Below are positions 140-43,149 of a stretch of DNA of 64,000 nucleotides, piece by piece (position 1 is the stretch's first letter; each line of letters opens with the position of its first letter). Source of the stretch: Candidatus Hydrogenedentota bacterium (GTDB taxonomy: Bacteria; Hydrogenedentota; Hydrogenedentia; Hydrogenedentales; JAGMZX01); the NCBI GenBank assembly GCA_029556545.1, contig JAKQEQ010000076.1, forward strand, positions 61,231 through 125,230. The letters are read 5' to 3'. The notes under the pieces are model-generated. The model saw only the letters and a program-made list of their open reading frames with translations. It was not told the origin of the DNA and made no database searches. Position numbers and translations under genes: made by a program.

Positions 140-1813
140 TCATTTGTTTTTCTGATCAAGCAAACACAGTTGTTGCGCACTAGCATCCGACGTTACGAAA
201 CGGCGAAGCACAGATGCCGTGCAAGCACTGATGAGCTGCTTTTCCATCTCCCTTGGCTCAATCTTCATGAGTCCGTCACGATATTCCCGTCCTGGTTTAC
301 CTTCCTCAAACCACCGCTGCGCTTCCTTATTAAGGCATTCAAGGACAGTTAGCTTCTCCGTCCTTGTCCTGACGGGTTTTCTAAACCATCCGCCCAGAAT
401 ATTTGTAAGGTGTAGTAGATGCGCACTGTTCAAAATGAACCGCGGGGCACCGCGAAAGAGATACGTAACAAACAGATCGGCTGGCTGGTCCGGGATCGGG
501 AGCGAGTACCAATGCTTTAGACGCCGAGCCGTTGCTGTCATATGAAGCCCTTCACGTACCCCCTCCCGTAAGTACTCCTGAACTGCAGGATGCAACTTCT
601 CGATACTGACGCCCGGCAACGACAGCAGCCAACATGCGTGGCCGGAATCGCGAAGCACATTCCAGTTCACTTTGGAAAACTCGCAACCGTCTATAGGGAT
701 ACGTGTAGGCATGACCGGTTTGAGATAGCTTTCCGGAATCTGACGTCTTTTCACGTCATCATCTGATAAAACAAAAAACGCATTGCAGCCAGTCGAGATC
801 CCTCGTCTAATTCGGAGGGCTTGACCAAGACTGTTGCGCCCAGAAGGTCTTATTTCGGCAATGCTGGCAGTGGAGTCCGGACGATCAAGAACGTACAACA
901 ATGCTAAGGCCTTCGATCGGGGCGTACGCAGTTTGACGGGGATGACGTGTTGCGTTGATCGCCATCCGTGCCTCAAGAGAAGATCCGCTCGAAGGTGCCG
1001 GGAGTGCGCTGAGCCTGCAGCCTCCATTGGGAGAAGGAACAGGATGCGCCCGTTGTCGAAAGTCCTCCTGTGCTTCTGCGCGGCAACCCGCAGAATGTCC
1101 ACAGCTTTGCATAGAAAGTAGTTTCCGGCACCCGATAGCGGCGAAATATCTATTCCCAAGCTCGACCTGAGCCGCTCAAGCACGCTGTCGCGCGCCCGAA
1201 GGTTGTGAGACCGGACGTAGGGTGGATTGGACACAAACATATTTGGAGGCGGCAACCCCTTCTGCTCAAATCTATCTTGACCCAAGGTCAAGAAGTTTCC
1301 ATACCACACCCTGAAACTGGCAGGCGCATGGATTATCTCCAGCACATGGGCCGTACTCAGTGCTAGAATTGGGTCGCTTTCAACCCCGATATACCCCTTG
1401 ATGTCGATACCACGACGCAATACCGTTTCAGCGAAGATACCCGTACCTGCACCAGCATCACATAACACGTCATTCGTGTCCGGCACGCAAACTGACAAGG
1501 CCCACTCGGCGATTTGTGCTGGCGTAAAGTACTGCCCTTTGTGCTTTCGGTACTCAAGACTAAATGCTGCGCAATACAATTCTGCGAACACCTCAGCGTG
1601 ATATTTCCCCTCAGCGCTGAGCGCCATTCGGAGCTTCTCCAAGGCGTCTGGAAGGTCTCCAGTAAGTGTCGCTACCGGATAGGTTGGGCAGTTCTCTATG
1701 CGTCTGTATGTCGCTTTTCCAGCAAGAGCTACGAGGAGCTGCAGCAGAGTGACTGGTGAGCCCTTAACAAGACTACTCAACCTATGAATTGGTGCTCTAA
1801 CCACGGCGATCAC
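140..1813 (-). CDS. N6-adenine DNA methyltransferase, PglX/Eco57I-like (orphan, coupled to kinase-HD gene)
   Basis: Predicted SAM-dependent DNA methyltransferase that modifies adenine in a specific DNA site. Visible motifs in order: motif X GQYFTP at residues 93-98, SAM-binding motif I DAGAGTG at 119-125, and catalytic motif IV NPPY at 196-199. The C-terminal third, from about residue 335 (GISTGCNAFF), resembles the target-recognition domain of type IIG and PglX-type enzymes. No nuclease or helicase domain is visible, so it is not a self-contained type IIG enzyme. The start is GTG, and GTGA overlaps the stop of the upstream kinase-HD gene, so the two are translationally coupled. Codon and base composition are more AT-rich than in genes beyond 5.6 kb, which suggests transfer. 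The fold is secure; the target site and biological role are inferred. Confidence 0.85.
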   Translation of the reverse strand: MIAVVRAPIHRLSSLVKGSPVTLLQLLVALAGKATYRRIENCPTYPVATLTGDLPDALEKLRMALSAEGKYHAEVFAELYCAAFSLEYRKHKGQYFTPAQIAEWALSVCVPDTNDVLCDAGAGTGIFAETVLRRGIDIKGYIGVESDPILALSTAHVLEIIHAPASFRVWYGNFLTLGQDRFEQKGLPPPNMFVSNPPYVRSHNLRARDSVLERLRSSLGIDISPLSGAGNYFLCKAVDILRVAAQKHRRTFDNGRILFLLPMEAAGSAHSRHLRADLLLRHGWRSTQHVIPVKLRTPRSKALALLYVLDRPDSTASIAEIRPSGRNSLGQALRIRRGISTGCNAFFVLSDDDVKRRQIPESYLKPVMPTRIPIDGCEFSKVNWNVLRDSGHACWLLSLPGVSIEKLHPAVQEYLREGVREGLHMTATARRLKHWYSLPIPDQPADLFVTYLFRGAPRFILNSAHLLHLTNILGGWFRKPVRTRTEKLTVLECLNKEAQRWFEEGKPGREYRDGLMKIEPREMEKQLISACTASVLRRFVTSDASAQQLCLLDQKNK

Positions 1814-4686
1814 ACTTCCGCAATGACACCTTCTAGTTCCTTGACAAGGGAATGCTCGGACTGTTCGTAGGCCAGACTAACCAGATTGGCAACTTGAGGA
1901 TGACATAGAATACGCACGGGTGCTATGGCTTCGATCATGCTCTGCATCGTCTTCTTCCATCTCTTGTCCTCCGTTGCCAATCGTGCGTCTTGATGATATG
2001 ACCGTTCCTTCAGTTCGGGTACTACTCCAAGCGGTCGTTCATATCCCACTTTGTTGGACGGGCGAGGCACATCGACCAAGATCAGCAGATTATGTTCGCA
2101 TAGGGCGCTGAACTCGTCCTGCTTCAATAAAGACCTTGTTTGTAAATCCCCCCAATCCTGTTCCAAGCGTTCCTGCACGCGTCTGTGGAGATTCTCGCAT
2201 AGTGCAATGCATTTCGGCCAGTCCAATCCATCAAGCTTGCCGATTACTGATTCATGTGTCCCGCCGCGATTCAGCGTAGCAACCCGCTTATAAAGCTGTC
2301 GGCTTTGGATGCCCGTGATCAGATTGCGACTCTTCTGATCGGCTTGTGGAAGATTGGCAATCCACCGCAGCATGAGCCAATCCGTCCAGGCTACCCCCGG
2401 GTACCACATTGCCTCTCCGCACATCTCTGATGCAGCATGTGGCTCCTGTATGTCGGCCAGTGGAAGCTCAGCAACAACGCTCTCCGACGGTTCCCCCATC
2501 ATGTCCAAGGGCGACAGAGGGCGGTCGTCTGGCTGCCCTGCCTCACGACCAATTTCGAATGGCGGCACAAGAGCCTTGACAAATACGACAAGTTTCTCGC
2601 GAATCTGTGCCTCCAGAGCCGAGCCTCTCCGAGACGATGACCAGAAGACTTCGGGAGGTAGGCCCATTGCTGTCGCGTATTGAAGCATTGCTTTTGCGAT
2701 TCTGGATGTATGATGCCAATACACTGTTGCCAAGAGCTGATAGCGTGCCTGTCCGAATGCGTGTGCGCTTGCGATTCCCTTGTCATAAACACCGAGGGTA
2801 ACACGCCGCTGAAGCGTCTCATCAGGTATGATCGCTACCGTTAACACTCGGAAGAATCTTTCAAGGTCAAGCTGTTGGCCATAGGGAAGCTCACAACGGG
2901 CAGAATCGCGCACGATGTAGTCGGCCTTGTCTGCATCAACAGGCCCATCTATGATGGCAGAGAGCACGTCGTACTTGAACGATCTAGGCTCGACTTGTTC
3001 CACTAGGTCTTCGTTCCGTGAGTGCGCCGTAAGGATCCTCCGAAGGGACTCCACTCGCACATCCCAACCATTTTGCGAGTCCTCAATAATTGTCTTGAGA
3101 GTACGTCCCCGGCGGTCCGTAGTCGTGTCCTCCAACAGTGATAGGCCGATTCGTGTATGTTTGAATATCCCTGGATGGACTTCCTCCAAGTCGTGCGCCA
3201 ACGGATATTGACCGAGGTCGTGCAATAGGGAGGCTAGGAGAACCGCATGGAGGTCCTCAATTCCTACAAGATTTCGAAAGATTGGATTGCCAAGATCGTT
3301 AAATAGATACCTAATATAATTGGTCACATATGTATAGGTTCCAAGCACATGATCGTAACGTGCATGATCAGCTGTCGGGTAGACCAAGCTTACCAGGCCA
3401 AGCTGGCTCACAAATTTCAACCGTCCTACTAATGGGTGCTCAAGAACCCCTCGAAGGCGCTCTGTCTGCACTGTGTTGAAGCCAGGCACCAATCTAACGA
3501 TATGCTTCGAATAGGTCGCGAGTTCCGGGACGTGATCTTCAATGTTCCAACCGCCACGTTCTTTTCGTAGATCACGCTCTACATCATTGAGGTTGTCATA
3601 CTTGAGGCCGGTGTAGTGTTTCGCTTCGAGGCCTGGGAATATCTGGGGCGCATGTTTGAACGTAACGGGAGGCTGACTTCGGTTTTGGCCATCCAAAAGT
3701 CGCGTTGCCAGAAAATGCAGTGATCGAAACAGTGGCAACTGCGGAACCACGTGCGGCCGAATGCTAGCCACTTCATGGAGCGCTTCGAGCAGACAAATGC
3801 CTAGCGCGTAATAATCGAAAGGAATTGCTAGTTCGCTGCGCTTGATTCCGCCTCGAACTCGATTGGACGACGCTTTTTCCACTTGCCGATGGAGGAGAAC
3901 GGGGTGGGCGTAGCGTTTGGTGAAAAACACGTCGATAGGACTGTGGTCGCCGCAATCAATAGTCTCAACAGATCCAAAGTCTATCGCCGTGAGATGTGTG
4001 TGCTCAGCAATCAAGACGTTGTCCGGCTTGACGTCGAGATAAACGTAGCCGCAATTATGCAGATAATATAGTGCGCTGGTCCACTGAGAAAATATGATCC
4101 CTAAATCTGCCAAGAGAGCGTTTATGCCAGCAATCGTCTGCCCGGCGTCATACCTTGGGTCCGGAAGCTGTGCTTCCAGCTGAGTGATCTGTCTCCACAG
4201 CCATGTTTTGTTTTTCTCAGGCTCGTCTTGGCTGTGGGTGAAAAACTGTGCCGACCCCTTTATGAATGGCTCAACGATATAGGTAAGGTCTGGGCAGTCA
4301 GTTTGTGATTTGTTAGTCGCGGGTGGGAATCTTTTTGAGCCAATATGAAGTACGTTGATAATGTTATGATGAGTAAGCCCTGGGAGTATACGAGTTTCCT
4401 TGGTAACCATGGACGCCTCGAGACTCGGGATGTTCGGTCGATTGAACTTGATGACCACCTCCTGGGATAGGTGGTCGTCCTTGCCCAGGAACACTATACC
4501 AGTACCGCCGACCGCAATGGGCCTCGCAAGTGAATATCTACCGAGGAGTTCTGTGGCGAGAGCGGCGAGATATTTCTTGATGGTCGACTTCTCGCGGGCA
4601 AAGTCAGCTTTCCTTGTGTCGCCATAGAAAGTCGACATTTCCGTAAGCCACGAGTCGGTTGAGGGAGCAGCAGGTGTATTTGACAT
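1810..4686 (-). CDS. Ser/Thr protein kinase fused to SAMHD1-like HD phosphohydrolase
   Basis: A 958-residue fusion. Residues about 50-310 form a protein kinase: glycine loop around 59-65 (VGGTGIVF), ATP lysine K80, catalytic loop YLDVKPDN (D218, N223; the usual HRD is YLD) and a DFG motif at D236. Residues about 420-620 form an HD domain of the SAMHD1/dGTPase type: H441, H489-D490 in HDLGQYPLAH, and D584/D586 in the VDADK segment that matches SAMHD1 GIDVDK. The position matching SAMHD1 H210 is Gln493. The C-terminal 340 residues are not recognised. There is a good ribosome binding site (AAGGAG) before the ATG. It is the first gene of an operon with the methyltransferase. Likely activities are phosphorylation and dNTP or nucleotide hydrolysis. 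A role in phage defence is inference from the architecture and the methyltransferase partner. Confidence 0.85.
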   Translation of the reverse strand: MSNTPAAPSTDSWLTEMSTFYGDTRKADFAREKSTIKKYLAALATELLGRYSLARPIAVGGTGIVFLGKDDHLSQEVVIKFNRPNIPSLEASMVTKETRILPGLTHHNIINVLHIGSKRFPPATNKSQTDCPDLTYIVEPFIKGSAQFFTHSQDEPEKNKTWLWRQITQLEAQLPDPRYDAGQTIAGINALLADLGIIFSQWTSALYYLHNCGYVYLDVKPDNVLIAEHTHLTAIDFGSVETIDCGDHSPIDVFFTKRYAHPVLLHRQVEKASSNRVRGGIKRSELAIPFDYYALGICLLEALHEVASIRPHVVPQLPLFRSLHFLATRLLDGQNRSQPPVTFKHAPQIFPGLEAKHYTGLKYDNLNDVERDLRKERGGWNIEDHVPELATYSKHIVRLVPGFNTVQTERLRGVLEHPLVGRLKFVSQLGLVSLVYPTADHARYDHVLGTYTYVTNYIRYLFNDLGNPIFRNLVGIEDLHAVLLASLLHDLGQYPLAHDLEEVHPGIFKHTRIGLSLLEDTTTDRRGRTLKTIIEDSQNGWDVRVESLRRILTAHSRNEDLVEQVEPRSFKYDVLSAIIDGPVDADKADYIVRDSARCELPYGQQLDLERFFRVLTVAIIPDETLQRRVTLGVYDKGIASAHAFGQARYQLLATVYWHHTSRIAKAMLQYATAMGLPPEVFWSSSRRGSALEAQIREKLVVFVKALVPPFEIGREAGQPDDRPLSPLDMMGEPSESVVAELPLADIQEPHAASEMCGEAMWYPGVAWTDWLMLRWIANLPQADQKSRNLITGIQSRQLYKRVATLNRGGTHESVIGKLDGLDWPKCIALCENLHRRVQERLEQDWGDLQTRSLLKQDEFSALCEHNLLILVDVPRPSNKVGYERPLGVVPELKERSYHQDARLATEDKRWKKTMQSMIEAIAPVRILCHPQVANLVSLAYEQSEHSLVKELEGVIAEV

Positions 4687-5626: not shown

Positions 5627-7732
5627 TTACGGCGCGACGCCGACGCGGTCCTTGCTGGGGGCGGGCAGTTCCTCGACTTCGAGTTCCTGCTGCTGGGGCA
5701 TGTGCTCGGCCACGATGATCTCGCACTTGTCGCCGTCGCAGAAGAGGTCCTGGGCCTCGTCGGTGTTGATGGTTTCGAGGGTGAACGGCCGCAGCTTCTC
5801 GATAGCCTGCTCGAAGACCTCCTTGGGAATCTCCTGATACGGCGCCTGGGCGTAGTTGTGCTCCTTGAGCGGCAGAAAACTGACGGACTTGATGCGCGTC
5901 TCGTAGAGTTCGAGTACGAAGGGGATGTCCTTTGCTTCCTCGGGCCGGAAGGTCACGGTGGCGCTGACCTGGTTGTCCGCCCAGTAGTAGGCCATCTGCG
6001 CCACGTTCTCCATCTGTTCCCAGATGGACACGTCGCGCTTCGAGCGGTTGAAGTACCGCTCGTGCACCGGGAAGTAGACGATCCACGTGTTGTCGCCGTA
6101 GACGGATTCCTCGATGCGGTAGCCGGCCTTGCGCAGCGGCTCGATGAGGGGGCTCGTCTTGTCGATGCGGATCGTGCGGTAGTAGTACTCGGAGTGGGGG
6201 TAATGGATTCCCGGCGAGACGCCCGGCAGCAGCGATACGGTGCCGCTCGGCTTGACGCTCGTCGTCTTGATGCTCTGGGGAATGCACAGCCAGTCCGAAT
6301 AAATCTTGTCCAGTTCGCGGACATAGGCGTAGCCGTCGTCGCACCAGCGGAAATGGCTCCGGCGGCCATGGCGCTCGAAGCTCTCGACGATGCCGGACTG
6401 GGACAGTCCGATGCGGCGGTTGCGCAGCATGATCGCGTTGGTGCGTTCGTTGTGCGTCGGGATCAGCGTGACGGTCTTCGCGTAGAGATAGGCAAATTTG
6501 AGGGTGCGCTTGTACTCCTCGATGGTCTCGTGCCGCGACGGGAAGGTCTCGACAAGGTTGCAGATTTCAAAGGATTCGAGGCTCTGCTCGGCGCAGGGAT
6601 TCGTGCCGGCCACCTTCGCGTCGGCCCACGTCGCGCCGTCCTTGAAACGCCCGAACGCCCGCGCGTTCTCGCGCCAGAAGTAGCCCGGCTCGCCGTTCTT
6701 GGCGGTCTGGGCGCCCACGGGGCCGTAATCCATGCCCTCGCGCGCGCTCACGCTGTTGTTGGACGCCCAGCGCCAGGCCGTCAGCTTGTCTTCGTGCAGC
6801 TTCGGGTCCTTCAGCCGCAGGTACTCCTCATCGCCGGGATCCCCGAGGGCGAGTTCCGCCGTGCGGCGCACGCCGCCCGAGACGACGCACTTGCCAATGA
6901 CGTTCATGAGGTCCGTGATATCCGTCGAGGTAATGCGCTCGCCGATGCGGGCGTCGAGAATCTTGGTGAGGTTATTGACGCACTCGATAAGCGGCCCGGG
7001 GCCGGGGGCGATGCCGCCAAAGGTCTTGATGGGCGCGCCCATGGGGCGGATTTTGCCGTAGTCGATGTGCGTGGGCTTGAGCGCGCGCCCGATATAGGCG
7101 TTCAACATCGTGCGCACCAGGTCGCACCAGCCCTCCTTCGAGTCCTCGACCGTGAACGTGTAGTCGCCGCCGGTGGGCCGCTGGACGCGGATTTTGCCCG
7201 CGCCGCTCGTGTCGAACGCCACGCCGACGCCGAGCATGGACATGTCCATGAGGAAACAGAACGGCTCCGCGAAGTCCGTGTCGATTTCCTCGGTCGAGAC
7301 GAACGCGCAGTTGTTCAGCGCCGCCGATCCCCGCTGGTAGATGTAGTCCGTGCCCATCATCCACAGGCCGCGCCCCGGCGGCAGGAACTTGAAGTCCCAC
7401 ATGAGCCGGTACATCTCCTGGGCCGAGCGCTGCGCCTTCTCGGGATTCCACGGGAGCTTGAGGTTCATACAGTGGGTCTTCTGGATGGTGTAGCACCCCT
7501 CGACCACCCGCCGCACCGTCTCCCAGTACTCCTCGGTCCGGCCGGCGCCGTTCTCGACGACCCGCGCGTAGGTGCGCTTGTAGGTGATGTACCCCAGAGG
7601 TCCCCAGGCCGGCTGTTTCCCGCGAAACAACTGGATGAACTCCTCGGACAGTTTGAATGGTTCCTTCACCGGAAACAGCATGGTCTGCGCCTCCCTCTTC
7701 TGGCTGTTGGCGTTCTCTTCTCGCTGTATCAT
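5627..7732 (-). CDS. nrdJ: Adenosylcobalamin-dependent ribonucleoside-triphosphate reductase (class II)
   Basis: Reduces ribonucleoside triphosphates to dNTPs using adenosylcobalamin to generate a thiyl radical; monomeric class II type. The key active-site string NPCAE, followed eleven residues after its Cys by the Cys of EICNL, matches C408, E410 and C419 of the Lactobacillus enzyme. The NNC near the N-terminus supplies the other redox Cys. The phosphate-binding TTSVKPSGTVSLLPG loop is intact. A CX4C pair (CDGDKC) near the C-terminus fits the shuttle cysteines, but about 32 further residues follow it. The frame is open to 7762. I prefer ATG 7732 because its ATGA overlaps the stop of the upstream four-helix-bundle gene; ATG 7681, which has a strong GGGAGG, is the alternative. 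It is the last gene of the thyX operon. Confidence 0.93.
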   Translation of the reverse strand: MIQREENANSQKREAQTMLFPVKEPFKLSEEFIQLFRGKQPAWGPLGYITYKRTYARVVENGAGRTEEYWETVRRVVEGCYTIQKTHCMNLKLPWNPEKAQRSAQEMYRLMWDFKFLPPGRGLWMMGTDYIYQRGSAALNNCAFVSTEEIDTDFAEPFCFLMDMSMLGVGVAFDTSGAGKIRVQRPTGGDYTFTVEDSKEGWCDLVRTMLNAYIGRALKPTHIDYGKIRPMGAPIKTFGGIAPGPGPLIECVNNLTKILDARIGERITSTDITDLMNVIGKCVVSGGVRRTAELALGDPGDEEYLRLKDPKLHEDKLTAWRWASNNSVSAREGMDYGPVGAQTAKNGEPGYFWRENARAFGRFKDGATWADAKVAGTNPCAEQSLESFEICNLVETFPSRHETIEEYKRTLKFAYLYAKTVTLIPTHNERTNAIMLRNRRIGLSQSGIVESFERHGRRSHFRWCDDGYAYVRELDKIYSDWLCIPQSIKTTSVKPSGTVSLLPGVSPGIHYPHSEYYYRTIRIDKTSPLIEPLRKAGYRIEESVYGDNTWIVYFPVHERYFNRSKRDVSIWEQMENVAQMAYYWADNQVSATVTFRPEEAKDIPFVLELYETRIKSVSFLPLKEHNYAQAPYQEIPKEVFEQAIEKLRPFTLETINTDEAQDLFCDGDKCEIIVAEHMPQQQELEVEELPAPSKDRVGVAP

Positions 7733-8151
7733 GCCTTTATCCTCTCGATGCCCGACGCACACCCCGCGCCGGACGAAACTCCCTCATCCATATATCCTTC
7801 CAGCAACCGTGTCAACTCCGCCGTGGCCCGCAGCAGCGGCGCGATATCCGCGTACCGCACTTCCGTGGCCAGCAACAGGCTGTGCCGCACTTCCTCGACG
7901 GCCTCGATCGCCTTGTTGATATAGTGGCGACGCTCAGTCCGCTCGCTGTATTTCAGTCCGTCAGCGATTTTCAGCGGCAGGGTAAACGCCGTTTCGCCGA
8001 GCTGCCCGGGCCACTCCCGGGGACACGCCCGCGACGGCCCCCCGAACAGACGCTCGGCGTCCTCGACGAAGCGGCAGGCCAAATGCCACAGCACGAGGTC
8101 GCGAATCGTCGGCTCGTGCCGCGCGGCGGCTTCATGCTCTCGCAGCATCAT
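7729..8151 (-). CDS. Four-helix-bundle protein, S23/23S rRNA intervening-sequence family-like
   Basis: A 140-residue, mostly helical protein. The pattern of about four amphipathic helices, with a central stretch resembling the PLKIADGLKYSERTERRHYINKA region of S23-type four-helix-bundle proteins, places it near the family named for proteins encoded in 23S rRNA intervening sequences. That family forms pentameric bundles and has no settled enzymatic role. Here the gene sits between thyX (11-base gap) and the ribonucleotide reductase (ATGA overlap), so it is probably co-translated with both and may act as a small structural or nucleic-acid-binding partner. Family assignment is moderate and function is unknown. 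Confidence 0.6.
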   Translation of the reverse strand: MMLREHEAAARHEPTIRDLVLWHLACRFVEDAERLFGGPSRACPREWPGQLGETAFTLPLKIADGLKYSERTERRHYINKAIEAVEEVRHSLLLATEVRYADIAPLLRATAELTRLLEGYMDEGVSSGAGCASGIERIKA

Positions 8152-8162
8152 TCAGGCTCGCC

Positions 8163-8945
8163 TTACACCTTGCCGCAGGCCGTCTTGACCCACGGCAGTC
8201 CGTCCACCGTTTCCACTTCATAATCGCCGAACAAGTTCGGATACCGCTCTCGGACCAGGTCAAACACCTTGCCGAAGAGCAGTCGAATTTCCTCCTCCGC
8301 GTGCGGGTCCGTGCGCATCTCGACTACGTGCCGCAGCGCCCGGATGTTGCAGGACCAGCCGATGGTCGTCGCCACGCCGATGGGCGCGACCCGCCGGAAC
8401 GCCGAGGTCAACTTCTTCTTGGCGTCGAATTCCTGCTCGTCCTCGATCCCGTAAATCTCCGCGAGCGTGCGCTGGAGTTCCTCGAGTTGCTCGATGGTCC
8501 GCACGAAGACCTCCATCCCCTCTTCGCTCTCGCGGATTTGCGTCGGCGCGTAGACGGACAGTTCCTCGAGCCGCACGAAACGCAGCGACTCCTGGGAGAT
8601 CGCCGTGCCGGCGCGGTGTCGCACCAGTTCGTGGGTCACGACGCGGCTCACGTCCGCGAAAATGAAATTCATCACCCCGTGCTCGAGCACGCTGCCGTGC
8701 CGGACCCGGATGATGTTCTCGAGGTACTTCGCGTTGCCTTGCCGCACGCGCTTTACGTTCGGGTTCAGTCCCGGCTCGAAGGACCGATAGCATAACCGCC
8801 CCATAACCTCGGTCAGCCGCTCGACGTCGCTCGGCGCGTCCGTGCCCCACGAGGCGACGCCGATATGCTCCAGGTATGCTTGCAGGCCGCCCTCGTGAAC
8901 GCGGGTCTCCCCGACCAAAAAGACTTTCGGCTCCACAACCTTCAC
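8163..8945 (-). CDS. thyX: Flavin-dependent thymidylate synthase
   Basis: Converts dUMP to dTMP with methylene-tetrahydrofolate, FAD and NADPH; homotetrameric cytosolic enzyme. The ThyX signature is present as RHRAGTAISQESLR. The spacing from RHR to the last Ser is one residue longer than in the textbook RHRX7S motif, as in the RHRAGTA-type subgroup. The N-terminus begins VKVVEPKVFLVG, a normal ThyX start. The frame is open to 9038, but the GTG at 8943-8945 has a well-placed GGTGAGG upstream, so I use it (260 residues). First gene of thyX, four-helix-bundle protein, nrdJ: a compact dNTP-supply operon. No thyA is visible in the window. Confidence 0.92.
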   Translation of the reverse strand: MKVVEPKVFLVGETRVHEGGLQAYLEHIGVASWGTDAPSDVERLTEVMGRLCYRSFEPGLNPNVKRVRQGNAKYLENIIRVRHGSVLEHGVMNFIFADVSRVVTHELVRHRAGTAISQESLRFVRLEELSVYAPTQIRESEEGMEVFVRTIEQLEELQRTLAEIYGIEDEQEFDAKKKLTSAFRRVAPIGVATTIGWSCNIRALRHVVEMRTDPHAEEEIRLLFGKVFDLVRERYPNLFGDYEVETVDGLPWVKTACGKV

Positions 8946-9766
8946 GTGATCAACCTCACCACGTCTTCCTTCCAGTGTCCCGGACCGCCGCCTCCCGATC
9001 ACCGCCGCCGTCGCGCGTGCAGTTCCGGTTCCCTCCACATGGGGGTCGGATTATAGAAAGGGACGCGTGATTTGTAAAGCCCCTTTTTGAAAACGGGACG
9101 GGAGACCGTATTCGCATTTTTCACACGCACAAGCAGCCAACATGAACACAATATATAGGAGACAATGGCTACGTTGCATACTATATACTGTGTGAATGGT
9201 CGTTTCGACCTCCCCTGCCTCCGAGAAGGGCTTTGCACGCGTGCGCACGATGTTATCTCTTGACAAAAAACCGCCCGGAGGGGCCGAAACCCGGCACTCC
9301 CTGCTGGAGGAAGTACGACGATCGGAGCCGTCGGCTTGCGGAGGGTCCACTCGGAATCTATGCTTGCGGTCGGGTCTGCTTTTTCGAGGATCACCGGAAT
9401 TGGCAAGATGACTTACACACAATATATTGTATCAAAGTCAAAGATAATGAGAATTTACATCTATATGCAGTAGATATCATTATTCATATTCTAACCCTTG
9501 GGATATGCCTGTTAACCATTTTCAGCCTCCTTGGCGATCATCTCCCTGCACTCGCGAGTAACTTCCGTTGCAGGCGCTGTCACGTTCGGTTCAGTGTTTG
9601 GCACGTTTATTCGCGGTTTTCGTTGTATTCGCATAGTAAAATGAGCCAAATCGGTCCGGCGATCCCTGTTCTTGGCGTGTCATGGGCCTCGGTCGGAGGC
9701 ATCGGAAGGGCATATCATGCTATACTCTGCCCGTTTTCCGGCCTTCGGCATGGGGAAATAGATCGC
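8946..9766. other. AT-rich divergent intergenic region
   Basis: About 820 bases between thyX (leftward) and the glycosyltransferase (rightward), clearly more AT-rich than the flanking genes. No credible coding sequence is seen, although the glycosyltransferase frame happens to stay open back to 9233. It contains an inverted repeat at 9146-9193 and a related palindromic motif at 9415-9432. It must hold the divergent promoters for both transcription units. Confidence 0.5.
9146..9193. repeat. Imperfect inverted repeat in thyX upstream region
   Basis: The left arm 9146-9158 (ACACAATATATAG) and the right arm 9181-9193 (CTATATACTGTGT) are complementary with one mismatch, separated by 22 bases. The sequence ACACAATATAT recurs at 9417-9427, followed by a perfect palindrome CAATATATTG at 9420-9429. 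It could be an operator pair for a regulator of thyX or of the glycosyltransferase gene, or a cruciform-forming AT element. The function is not determinable by eye. Confidence 0.45.
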
Positions 9767-25373: not shown

Positions 25374-26264
25374 ATGCTGCGACGCCGAAAAAAAGACGCG
25401 CTCGCGGACGCCGAAGCGGGCACGTCGCTATGGAAAGACGCCTACTGGCGGTTGCGGAAGAACCGCCTGGCGCTCTTCGGCGCGTGCGTGAGCTGCATCG
25501 TCGCAATCGTCGCGATCGCCGGGCCGTGGTGCTCGCCTTACGCCTACGACGAGCAGGACCGCGAACTCGGGGCGGTCGGGCCGTGCGCCGCGCACTGGCT
25601 CGGCACGGACCTGCTCGGGCGGGACCTGCTCACGCGCACGCTGTACGGGGGCCGCGTGTCGCTCCTCGTCGGTATCGCGGCCACGGCGGTGTCGCTCGTT
25701 ATCGGAGTCTTGTACGGTGCGATTGCGGGGTTCCTCGGCGGGCGGACCGACGCCGTCATGATGCGCGTGGTCGACGTGCTCTACGCGCTGCCGTTCACAA
25801 TCACTGTGATCATCCTGATGGTGTATTTCGGGCGCAATTTCGTGTTGTTGTTCCTCGCCATCGGCGCGGTCGAGTGGCTGACCATGGCGCGGATCGTGCG
25901 CGGGCAGATTTTGTCGCTCAAGGAGAAGGAATTTATCGAGGCGGCGGTCGTCATGGGTTTGCGGCGGCGGCGCATCCTGCTCCGGCACCTGATCCCGAAC
26001 GTCCTCGGGCCGATCATCGTGTATACGACGTTGACCATTCCGAACGTCATGATTCTCGAGGCGTTCCTGAGCTTTCTCGGGCTGGGCGTACAGCCGCCCA
26101 TGAGTTCGTGGGGCCTCCTGATCAAGGAGGGCGTCGAGACGATGGAGCCCTTCTGGTGGATGCTCGTATTTCCCAGCGTCGCCCTGTCTGTGACGCTGTT
26201 TTCGCTGAATTTTTTCGGCGACGGCCTGCGCGACGCGCTCGACCCGCGCATGTCGAAGGATTAG
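25374..26264 (+). CDS. Oligopeptide ABC transporter permease (OppC-like)
   Basis: Second membrane subunit (296 residues). It has the LGTDLLGRDLLTRTLYGGRVSLLVG motif near the N-terminus and the EAA loop FIEAAVVMGLRRRRILLRHLIPN, and it ends DGLRDALDPRM as OppC and DppC do. ATG 25374 is preferred; the frame is open upstream only over the end of the OppB gene. The next genes are a toxin-antitoxin pair rather than the expected ATPases. Confidence 0.93.
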   Translation: MLRRRKKDALADAEAGTSLWKDAYWRLRKNRLALFGACVSCIVAIVAIAGPWCSPYAYDEQDRELGAVGPCAAHWLGTDLLGRDLLTRTLYGGRVSLLVGIAATAVSLVIGVLYGAIAGFLGGRTDAVMMRVVDVLYALPFTITVIILMVYFGRNFVLLFLAIGAVEWLTMARIVRGQILSLKEKEFIEAAVVMGLRRRRILLRHLIPNVLGPIIVYTTLTIPNVMILEAFLSFLGLGVQPPMSSWGLLIKEGVETMEPFWWMLVFPSVALSVTLFSLNFFGDGLRDALDPRMSKD

Positions 26265-26331
26265 AAGCCCCGAGAAGAAGCGTGACCGGATTTCGCAGCG
26301 GCAGTGGAAACAATAACGCAACGCCGTTCAC

Positions 26332-26360
26332 TTGTCGGGCGGCAACGCCGCCGGTATACT
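26332..26360 (+). promoter_or_regulatory. Promoter with embedded operator for the DUF433/DUF5615 pair
   Basis: TTGTCG (26332-26337), a 17-base spacer and TATACT (26355-26360). The spacer contains a perfect inverted repeat GGCGGC-AAC-GCCGCC at 26338-26352. A binding site between -35 and -10 would let the antitoxin repress its own operon. The promoter is a by-eye match; the operator role is inferred. Confidence 0.55.
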
Positions 26361-26392
26361 TAACAGAGGGACTATTGACGGAGAACACTCCT

Positions 26393-26620
26393 ATGAACAG
26401 CCGAATACAAATCAGCCCCGCTATATGCCATGGAAAGCCCGTTATTCGCGGAACCCGCGTGTTGGTCTCTTCAATACTTGGCGCTCTGGCTGGCGGAGAT
26501 TCGATCGAGATGGTGCTCGAGGATTATCCCAACATTACTCGAGATGACGTGGAGGCGGCATTGGCGTTCGCGGGCGAACTGTCGCGATTTGAGGAAATTC
26601 CTTACGAGACGGTTTCATGA
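26393..26620 (+). CDS. DUF433 antitoxin
   Basis: A 75-residue DUF433 protein. The family core is seen in RIQISPAICHGKPVIRGTRV and the VLEDYPNITRDDVEAALAFA segment, a helix-turn-helix-like DNA-binding fold. DUF433 genes are typically the antitoxin partner of PIN-like DUF5615 toxins. Here the stop overlaps the toxin start (ATGA), and a promoter with a palindrome lies just upstream, which fits autoregulation. Confidence 0.88.
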   Translation: MNSRIQISPAICHGKPVIRGTRVLVSSILGALAGGDSIEMVLEDYPNITRDDVEAALAFAGELSRFEEIPYETVS

Positions 26621-41951: not shown

Positions 41952-42388
41952 CTTTCACTCGAAATTCTCTATCCGCAAGGTCTCGGCGGTGTGCGCGTCC
42001 ATCACAATGGATCGTACACCGCCCTTTGTTTACGGGCTTTTCGTGATGTGTCCTCTCTGAGACAGCGTCTTTTTCAACGTGCCTCCGATCACACATCTTT
42101 CCCTTCCTGAACCCCGATCCGTCTCTTTTCTCGCGCCTTTTCTCTGTTTCAACGTGTCCACCCCCTTCGGCGACCCGTTGTTGCGATACAACGACTTACG
42201 AACACGGTTTTCGTTTTCCGAACTGATTTCGCATCGAGTAGGTTTTTTTCGCGGAAAATCTATTGTCCCCGCGTGTCTCCGAGAAATTCCGCATAAAGAA
42301 AGCCCCGCATCCCTTTCACGAACGTGTCCGGTAGTTAACCGACGGACGCCGCTTGCTTGTGGCGCCGAAGGACTCCCGGAGACATCGC
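41952..42388. other. AT-rich, pyrimidine-rich intergenic region
   Basis: About 440 bases next to the right attachment repeat, distinctly AT-rich and pyrimidine-rich on the plus strand. A short motif TTTCAACGTG occurs twice. No gene is supported. Confidence 0.4.
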
Positions 42389-42523
42389 ATGGACACACTC
42401 ACCACCGACCCGGAACTCATGACACCGCAGGAGCGGCAGCGCGAAGTTGCGGCGCTCCTTGCGCGCGTCACACAGAATACGCCGCGCCGGTCCAAGTCGT
42501 ACAAGTGCTCGAAATCCACGTAG
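42389..42523 (+). pseudogene. 5' fragment of a small conserved ORF, truncated by transposase debris
   Basis: ATG with a GGAG box starts MDTLTTDPELMTPQERQREVAALLARV, similar in style to small proteins often found next to recombinases in Planctomycetes-like genomes. After about residue 27 the sequence becomes antisense transposase, so the native C-terminus is gone. The remaining frame ends at 42523. Confidence 0.5.
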
Positions 42524-43149
42524 GCCTTGTCAAACAGCACGATTTCGCCCGCGCCGATGTCCGCGTAGAGTTCGCGCGCGCGTCTGTTGTCGTTGTGGCC
42601 GGCCGTGACGACGATGGCGAACTTCGGAAAGAAGCTCTGAAGATCCAGACACATGTGCAATTTTACCGCGGCCTTCTTGCGCCGCTCCTTGGCCCAGTCC
42701 ATACATTTCGCGATGAGTTGAATGGTGCTGGGGTCGACCACGTGGATCATGCGTTTAAAACGGTGGGGAAATCTCCGGTACGTCTTGCCGCCGAACGAAG
42801 GGCAGATCGCCGCGAGATGATGGAACACCGATCAGAACAGATCTTCGGCGATCTGCGCCGAACGGATCTTGTTGGCGTGCGAGAGGGTATTGCGCGCGGG
42901 CGGCGTTGCGCTTCGGATGGCCGACAACTTGCTCAAGTGCATGCGTATGCCGTCGCACACGTCGTTCAATCCTATCGCGTGCAAGGGTTGCACGCAGAGC
43001 AGCGCTACTATACGGCTCCACAAACTGAAGGTGCGTGCCTGCTCGTCCACGGCGTACTTGCGGGCCAGCTACGCCACGAGGTGGCCAGGGATGTACATGC
43101 ATATCTGCTGCAATGTGCTAAACTTCGACCGGGATGATTTCATGGCCAT
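42460..43149 (-). pseudogene. IS4-family transposase with two in-frame stops (DUF4372-type N-terminus)
   Basis: In a single frame from ATG 43149: an N-terminal region with SKFSTLQQICMYIPGHLVA, a stop TAG at 43069-43071, then KYAVDEQARTFSLWS and LSKLSAIRSATPPARNTLSHANK (DUF4372-like). A second stop, TGA at 42832-42834, stands where Trp is expected. The DDE core follows with MIHVVDPSTIQL, KLHMCLDLQSFFP and VLFDKAYVDFEHL. The C-terminus with the last acidic residue is missing after about 42460. No terminal inverted repeats are evident. A decayed insertion sequence. Confidence 0.8.

What the first reader, a model, noticed from the sequence alone, without database searches (positions are those of the whole stretch)
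140..4686. Kinase-SAMHD1-like HD fusion coupled to an N6-adenine methyltransferase: candidate undescribed defence system
Two genes share a GTGA overlap. One fuses an intact-looking Ser/Thr kinase to an HD domain with SAMHD1-type residues (H441, H489/D490, D584/D586); the other is a PglX-like adenine methyltransferase with no nuclease. Kinase plus methyltransferase recalls Pgl/BREX (PglW, PglX), and dNTP hydrolysis is a known anti-phage strategy, but I know of no described two-gene system with this fusion. The AT-rich composition suggests transfer. A model is that methylation marks self and the kinase-HD protein depletes dNTPs or cuts nucleotides on infection.
Basis: partly seen in the sequence, partly recalled or inferred. 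Interest (0 to 1): 0.88.

Follow-up and report, generated by a model that had tools for sequence, protein, structure and literature searches.

The report
Kinase fused to SAMHD1-like dNTPase
A rare bacterial protein joins a complete protein kinase to a complete SAMHD1-like nucleotide-destroying enzyme, recurs patchily across at least seven bacterial phyla with signs of horizontal transfer, and may be an undescribed phage-defence protein, but the DNA methyltransferase beside it here is not a regular partner.

Summary
The two genes are real and intact. The 958-aa protein is a complete Ser/Thr kinase (residues about 20-340) fused to a complete SAMHD1/EF1143-type dNTPase core (about 393-956); an AlphaFold model aligns the latter to E. 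faecalis EF1143 and human SAMHD1 at Z 22-26. I found the fusion at 13 further loci, in at least seven phyla counting the window's own; with one split kinase/HD pair they form one clade. The gene is lower in G+C than its flank median in 12 of 12 loci, and several copies lie beside restriction, defence-candidate or recombinase genes. This supports a mobile, kinase-controlled dNTP-depleting (probably anti-phage) protein. No such fusion was found in Pfam, NCBIfam, PADLOC-DB 2.0.0 or the papers searched. The methyltransferase is not PglX-like: it resembles the M subunit of XamI-type restriction-modification, lacks its nuclease, and accompanies the fusion only here (the split form has an unrelated type IIG enzyme beside it). 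A two-gene 'mark self and deplete' system is not supported; a one-gene kinase-dNTPase is. Function is untested.

The parts
1810..4686 (-). Kinase-dNTPase fusion protein, 958 aa; ATG start with GGAGA ribosome-binding-like motif; stop overlaps the next gene (GTGA)
3667..4629 (-). N-terminal Ser/Thr protein kinase domain (about residues 20-340); catalytic K80, E97, D218, K220, N223, DFG236 intact
   Evidence: Pfam Pkinase 3e-17; invariant residues in 12 family members
1819..3510 (-). SAMHD1/EF1143-type dNTPase core (about residues 393-956): HD motif H446, H489-D490, D586, with C-terminal lobe
   Evidence: Pfam HD and HD_assoc_2; SAMHD1 alignment; VIA-align Z 22-26 to EF1143 and SAMHD1
140..1813 (-). 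N6-adenine DNA methyltransferase of the kind paired with XamI restriction enzymes; no nuclease partner in the locus; probably not an essential part

Best explanation
The main gene encodes a one-protein, horizontally transferred module. A complete Ser/Thr kinase is fused to a complete SAMHD1-like dNTP triphosphohydrolase. I propose that the kinase senses or transmits a sign of infection or stress and, by autophosphorylation or a phosphorylation-linked change of shape, switches the dNTPase on (or releases it). The dNTPase then depletes dNTPs and stops phage replication, probably at a cost to the cell. Shown by computation: the fold, the conserved catalytic residues, a single clade spread across phyla, and lower G+C than flanking genes. 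Inferred: dNTP as substrate, kinase control of the hydrolase, and an anti-phage role. The adjacent M.XamI-like methyltransferase is most likely a co-acquired solitary or relict methyltransferase, not an essential part.
For: Fusion in G000, G018, G369 and G1646, in Verrucomicrobia, Acidobacteria, Microbacterium, another actinomycete, Bacteroidetes, Myxococcales and Chloroflexi, and on one IMG/VR contig. Kinase catalytic residues intact in 12 of 12 and HD metal residues in 11 of 12. One clade with the split form, 100/99. Model pLDDT 80.9, pTM 0.82; Foldseek and VIA-align best matches are C. elegans and human SAMHD1, EF1143 with bound dNTPs, and the HD proteins 2hek and 2q14. Residues at SAMHD1's GTP-binding allosteric site 1 (D137, Q142, R145; identity of that site from my own knowledge) are not kept in the family, which fits a different way of switching the enzyme. 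G+C below the flank median in 12 of 12 loci. Neighbours: GmrSD-type gene matching PDC-M55C (L034); DUF5131 plus PDC-M41A in the same orientation (L033); HNH restriction enzyme and PDC-S11 (L036); serine recombinases (L027, L035); Replic_Relax (L038); type IIG enzyme (L061). dNTP depletion by HD enzymes is an established defence (Clover CloA, PMC12265719).
Against: Five loci (L024, L032, L039, L040, L060) show mainly ordinary metabolic, RHS or unknown neighbours, and no control was run for how often random genes lie beside defence genes. SAMHD1 His210 is Gln here and in 8 of the 11 relatives aligned, so activity is not assured. One relative (L060) keeps the kinase but has lost HD metal residues, so the kinase may also have a role of its own. 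Kinase control of the hydrolase rests on the fusion and the missing GTP site only.
Confidence: 0.5

Rival explanations
1. A two-gene system: the methyltransferase marks self DNA and the kinase-HD protein answers unmarked invading DNA.
For: GTGA overlap and matching low GC3 (0.54 and 0.55) point to co-transfer and co-expression. A type IIG restriction-methyltransferase lies just upstream of the split HD and kinase genes in G148. A methyltransferase and a kinase occur together in the MADS defence system (model names MAD2 and MAD6).
Against: The methyltransferase has no relative in the flanks of the other fusion loci and none was found in nine of their genomes (which had no positive control). The two methyltransferases are of different kinds. 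Several fusion genes stand alone. The fusion has no recognised DNA-sensing domain.
Confidence: 0.15
2. A kinase-regulated dNTP-pool or stress regulator without a defence role.
For: In the window it lies beside NrdJ and ThyX, both dNTP-synthesis genes; ordinary neighbours in about five loci.
Against: The NrdJ-ThyX block is housekeeping and has no such gene at its NrdJ end in G001, G009 or G007. No other family locus was seen next to ribonucleotide reductase. Rare and patchy: full-length fusions in 3 of 386, 1 of 396, 1 of 240, 1 of 251, 1 of 188 and 2 of 199 genomes at the thresholds used, most of these being the genomes already known to hold it. G+C below the flank median everywhere. A housekeeping regulator would be more broadly conserved.
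Confidence: 0.2
3. The HD part acts on something other than dNTPs (a nucleotide signal, RNA or single-stranded DNA), or the kinase is the effector on host proteins with the HD part as its control.
For: L060 keeps the kinase with a degraded HD site; Gln replaces SAMHD1 His210 in most members; kinase-only defence proteins exist (PD-T4-6 models match the kinase part).
Against: SAMHD1 dNTP-pocket positions Q149, L150, R164, K312, Y315 and D319 are kept in all aligned members except L060 (their pocket roles from own knowledge); the closest ligand-bound solved structures are dNTP complexes.
Confidence: 0.12

Closest known systems
SAMHD1 and E. faecalis EF1143 (SAMHD1-like HD dNTPases)
   Same: Same fold over residues 393-956 (Z 22-26), same HD metal residues, most dNTP-pocket residues
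   Different: N-terminal kinase fusion; GTP allosteric site 1 residues not kept; His210 mostly Gln
Clover (CloA) and defence dGTPases
   Same: HD-fold enzyme that would deplete dNTPs to stop phage (PMC12265719)
   Different: Here the sequence and fold match the SAMHD1/EF1143 branch best, with a kinase in the same chain and no evident second gene such as CloB; the word 'kinase' does not occur in that paper
PD-T4-6 and MADS MAD6 kinases
   Same: PADLOC kinase models match the N-terminal part
   Different: They match the kinase part only; no PADLOC model spans kinase plus HD
XamI-type restriction-modification
   Same: Window methyltransferase aligns over about 80% of its length at 24-26% identity with M proteins next to XamI nucleases
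   Different: No XamI nuclease found beside it or in the genome (where the control did not ring)
Pgl / BREX
   Same: Contains a kinase and an adenine methyltransferase gene
   Different: Methyltransferase is not PglX-like; no further gene of a system evident left of the pair

Membership tests
SAMHD1-like (EF1143/SAMHD1) dNTPase | HD metal motif H...HD...D | tested here: met
   H446, H489-D490, D586
SAMHD1-like (EF1143/SAMHD1) dNTPase | Full catalytic-core fold | tested here: met
   Z 25.7 to 3irh, 23.5 to SAMHD1 5ao1, model residues 392-955
SAMHD1-like (EF1143/SAMHD1) dNTPase | dNTP hydrolysis | not testable with these tools
   needs an assay; Gln at the His210 position leaves doubt
Ser/Thr protein kinase | Gly loop, VAIK Lys, alpha-C Glu, HRD Asp, Asn, DFG Asp | tested here: met
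   all present in 12 of 12; the HRD His is Tyr in the window protein, and DFG is DLG in most relatives
Clover | CloA dGTPase together with CloB nucleotide-signal synthase | tested here: inconclusive
   no CloB model was run; no partner gene seen beside the fusion in the window
Pgl / BREX | PglX/BrxX-type methyltransferase | tested here: not met
   PADLOC best match is a type II methyltransferase; PglX not among 20 hits
Pgl / BREX | PglZ, BrxC/PglY and other core genes nearby | tested here: inconclusive
   ORFs of the 20 kb to the left were listed and read by eye, not scanned with BREX models
XamI restriction-modification | M.XamI-like methyltransferase | tested here: met
XamI restriction-modification | XamI nuclease next to the methyltransferase | tested here: not met
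   no match in the left flank; PF09572 not found in own genome, though the control did not ring

The most novel reading that the evidence does not exclude
An undescribed single-protein anti-phage effector in which a Ser/Thr kinase domain directly gates a SAMHD1-like dNTPase in the same chain, replacing the GTP/dNTP allosteric switch of SAMHD1 by phosphorylation.
Probability: 0.4. Interest if true: 0.8.

Novelty: new variant of a known kind. Interest (0 to 1): 0.6.

Why it matters
dNTP depletion is a defence shared by animals (SAMHD1) and bacteria, and human SAMHD1 is itself phosphorylated. A natural protein that carries its kinase and its dNTPase in one chain would allow a direct test of how phosphorylation can control antiviral nucleotide depletion, and would add a compact one-gene candidate to the defence catalogue.

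Tried and rejected
Pgl/BREX membership: the methyltransferase does not match PglX. Conserved two-gene pairing: no methyltransferase relative in the other fusion loci or found in nine of their genomes. Missing component left of position 1: none evident in 20 kb; the flank has no significant match to XamI nucleases. Island borders: no convincing direct repeats. Link to the adjacent NrdJ-ThyX: a conserved block with different sequence beyond NrdJ in G001, G009 and G007. The fusion in phages or plasmids: no record covered 80% of the query. Split kinase/HD pairs on plasmids: none at three HD loci examined. Promoter and terminator scans gave counts near the shuffled expectation.

Full report
Observation. 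Both ORFs exist as described, on the minus strand: a 958-aa protein at 1810-4686 and a 557-aa protein at 140-1813, overlapping by GTGA. The window is contig 159, bases 61231-125230, of a 6.1-Mb genome. Its kin G018 is recorded as Candidatus Hydrogenedentota (the L031 contig has the same length and genes as the G018 contig), so the host is probably of that phylum. The DNA left of position 1 holds no evident extra component. To the right lie NrdJ (5627-7762) and ThyX (8163-9038); these names are from reading the translations. They are conserved in three relatives, where different sequence follows NrdJ and the pair is absent there. GC3 of the two genes is 0.54 and 0.55 against a window median of 0.79.

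What the large protein is. Pfam gives a protein kinase, an HD domain and an HD-associated region. Searches of other genomes found the same fusion in G018, G369 and G1646, and in Verrucomicrobia, Acidobacteria, Microbacterium sp. T32, another actinomycete, Bacteroidetes, Myxococcales and Chloroflexi, and on one IMG/VR contig. Counting L039, which is interrupted by a stop, and L040, which is broken by masked bases, this makes 13 loci besides the window, in at least seven phyla counting the window's own. It is rare: of 386 genomes drawn as relatives, three held it in full length. Twelve aligned members share all main kinase residues, and eleven share the HD metal residues; L060 has lost them. H498 and H510 match His215 and His233; Q493 replaces His210, as in nine of twelve. 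The C-terminal third is not a new domain: it is the ordinary C-lobe of such HD proteins. The AlphaFold model has pLDDT 80.9 and pTM 0.82. Residues 392-956 align to EF1143 with dGTP/dATP at Z 25.7 and to human SAMHD1 at Z 23.5 (Foldseek). SAMHD1's GTP-site residues D137, Q142 and R145 are not conserved in the family.

Evolution. In an HD-domain tree of 50 rows, the 13 fused rows and the split pair of G148 form one clade (100/99); the tree does not follow taxonomy beyond near relatives. In G148 the HD gene is followed by a separate kinase gene and preceded by a type IIG restriction-methyltransferase. Among the standalone HD loci examined, none other had an adjacent kinase hit, although those loci had short flanks. 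The fusion gene has lower G+C than its flank median in 12 of 12 loci; the flanking ORFs there come from a simple longest-ORF caller, which can pick wrong frames in GC-rich DNA.

Neighbours. Defence or mobility genes were found near the fusion in L034 (GmrSD-type, PDC-M55C), L033 (DUF5131 and PDC-M41A), L036 (HNH restriction enzyme, PDC-S11), L035 (serine recombinase, AEP-like primase, a weak EcoEI_R_C hit), L027 (serine recombinase), L038 (Replic_Relax), and near the split pair in L061 (type IIG). L024, L032, L039, L040 and L060 had mostly ordinary or unknown neighbours. No control was possible, so this is suggestive and not a test of enrichment.

The methyltransferase. It matches type II methyltransferases best. 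Its plasmid relatives in Manganitrophus, Tabrizicola and Rhodococcus sit directly beside XamI nucleases. No XamI nuclease was found in the window's flank or genome (no positive control rang). It has no relative next to the other fusions. I therefore treat it as a probably co-acquired solitary methyltransferase. The short overlap and shared composition leave a functional link possible.

Mechanism and standing. The best-supported reading is a kinase-controlled dNTPase used as a one-gene defence or stress effector. Structure and conservation are shown by computation; substrate, control and phage protection are inferred. dNTP depletion by HD enzymes is known in Clover and related dGTPases (PMC12265719); kinase defence proteins are known too (PADLOC models). 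I found no model in Pfam, NCBIfam or PADLOC-DB 2.0.0 that spans both and no paper in the held library. I rate it a new variant of a known kind.

Noticed in passing
L061 4702-10581 (G148): Type IIG restriction-methyltransferase, then an HD gene of this clade, then a separate kinase gene cut by the contig end: an unfused form of the family.
   Followed up: partly
L060 8342-11104 (G369): Family member with an intact kinase but lost HD metal residues (H489D, D586Q) and very low G+C compared with its flanks.
   Followed up: partly
L039 7857-10559: Family member split by an in-frame TAA in a Chloroflexi assembly.
   Followed up: no
window 5627-9038: NrdJ next to ThyX is a conserved gene order in relatives G001, G007 and G009; the kinase-HD pair lies at its NrdJ end only here.
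   Followed up: partly
L003 779-1030: Short open stretch left of the methyltransferase without any match found.
   Followed up: partly
window 25430-26620 and 42079-43137: ORFs with unusually low GC3 (0.46 and 0.52) elsewhere in the window; may be wrong frames or further transferred genes.
   Followed up: no
L033 6192-7983: A DUF5131 gene and a PDC-M41A-like gene run in the same direction into the fusion gene, the latter overlapping its called start.
   Followed up: no
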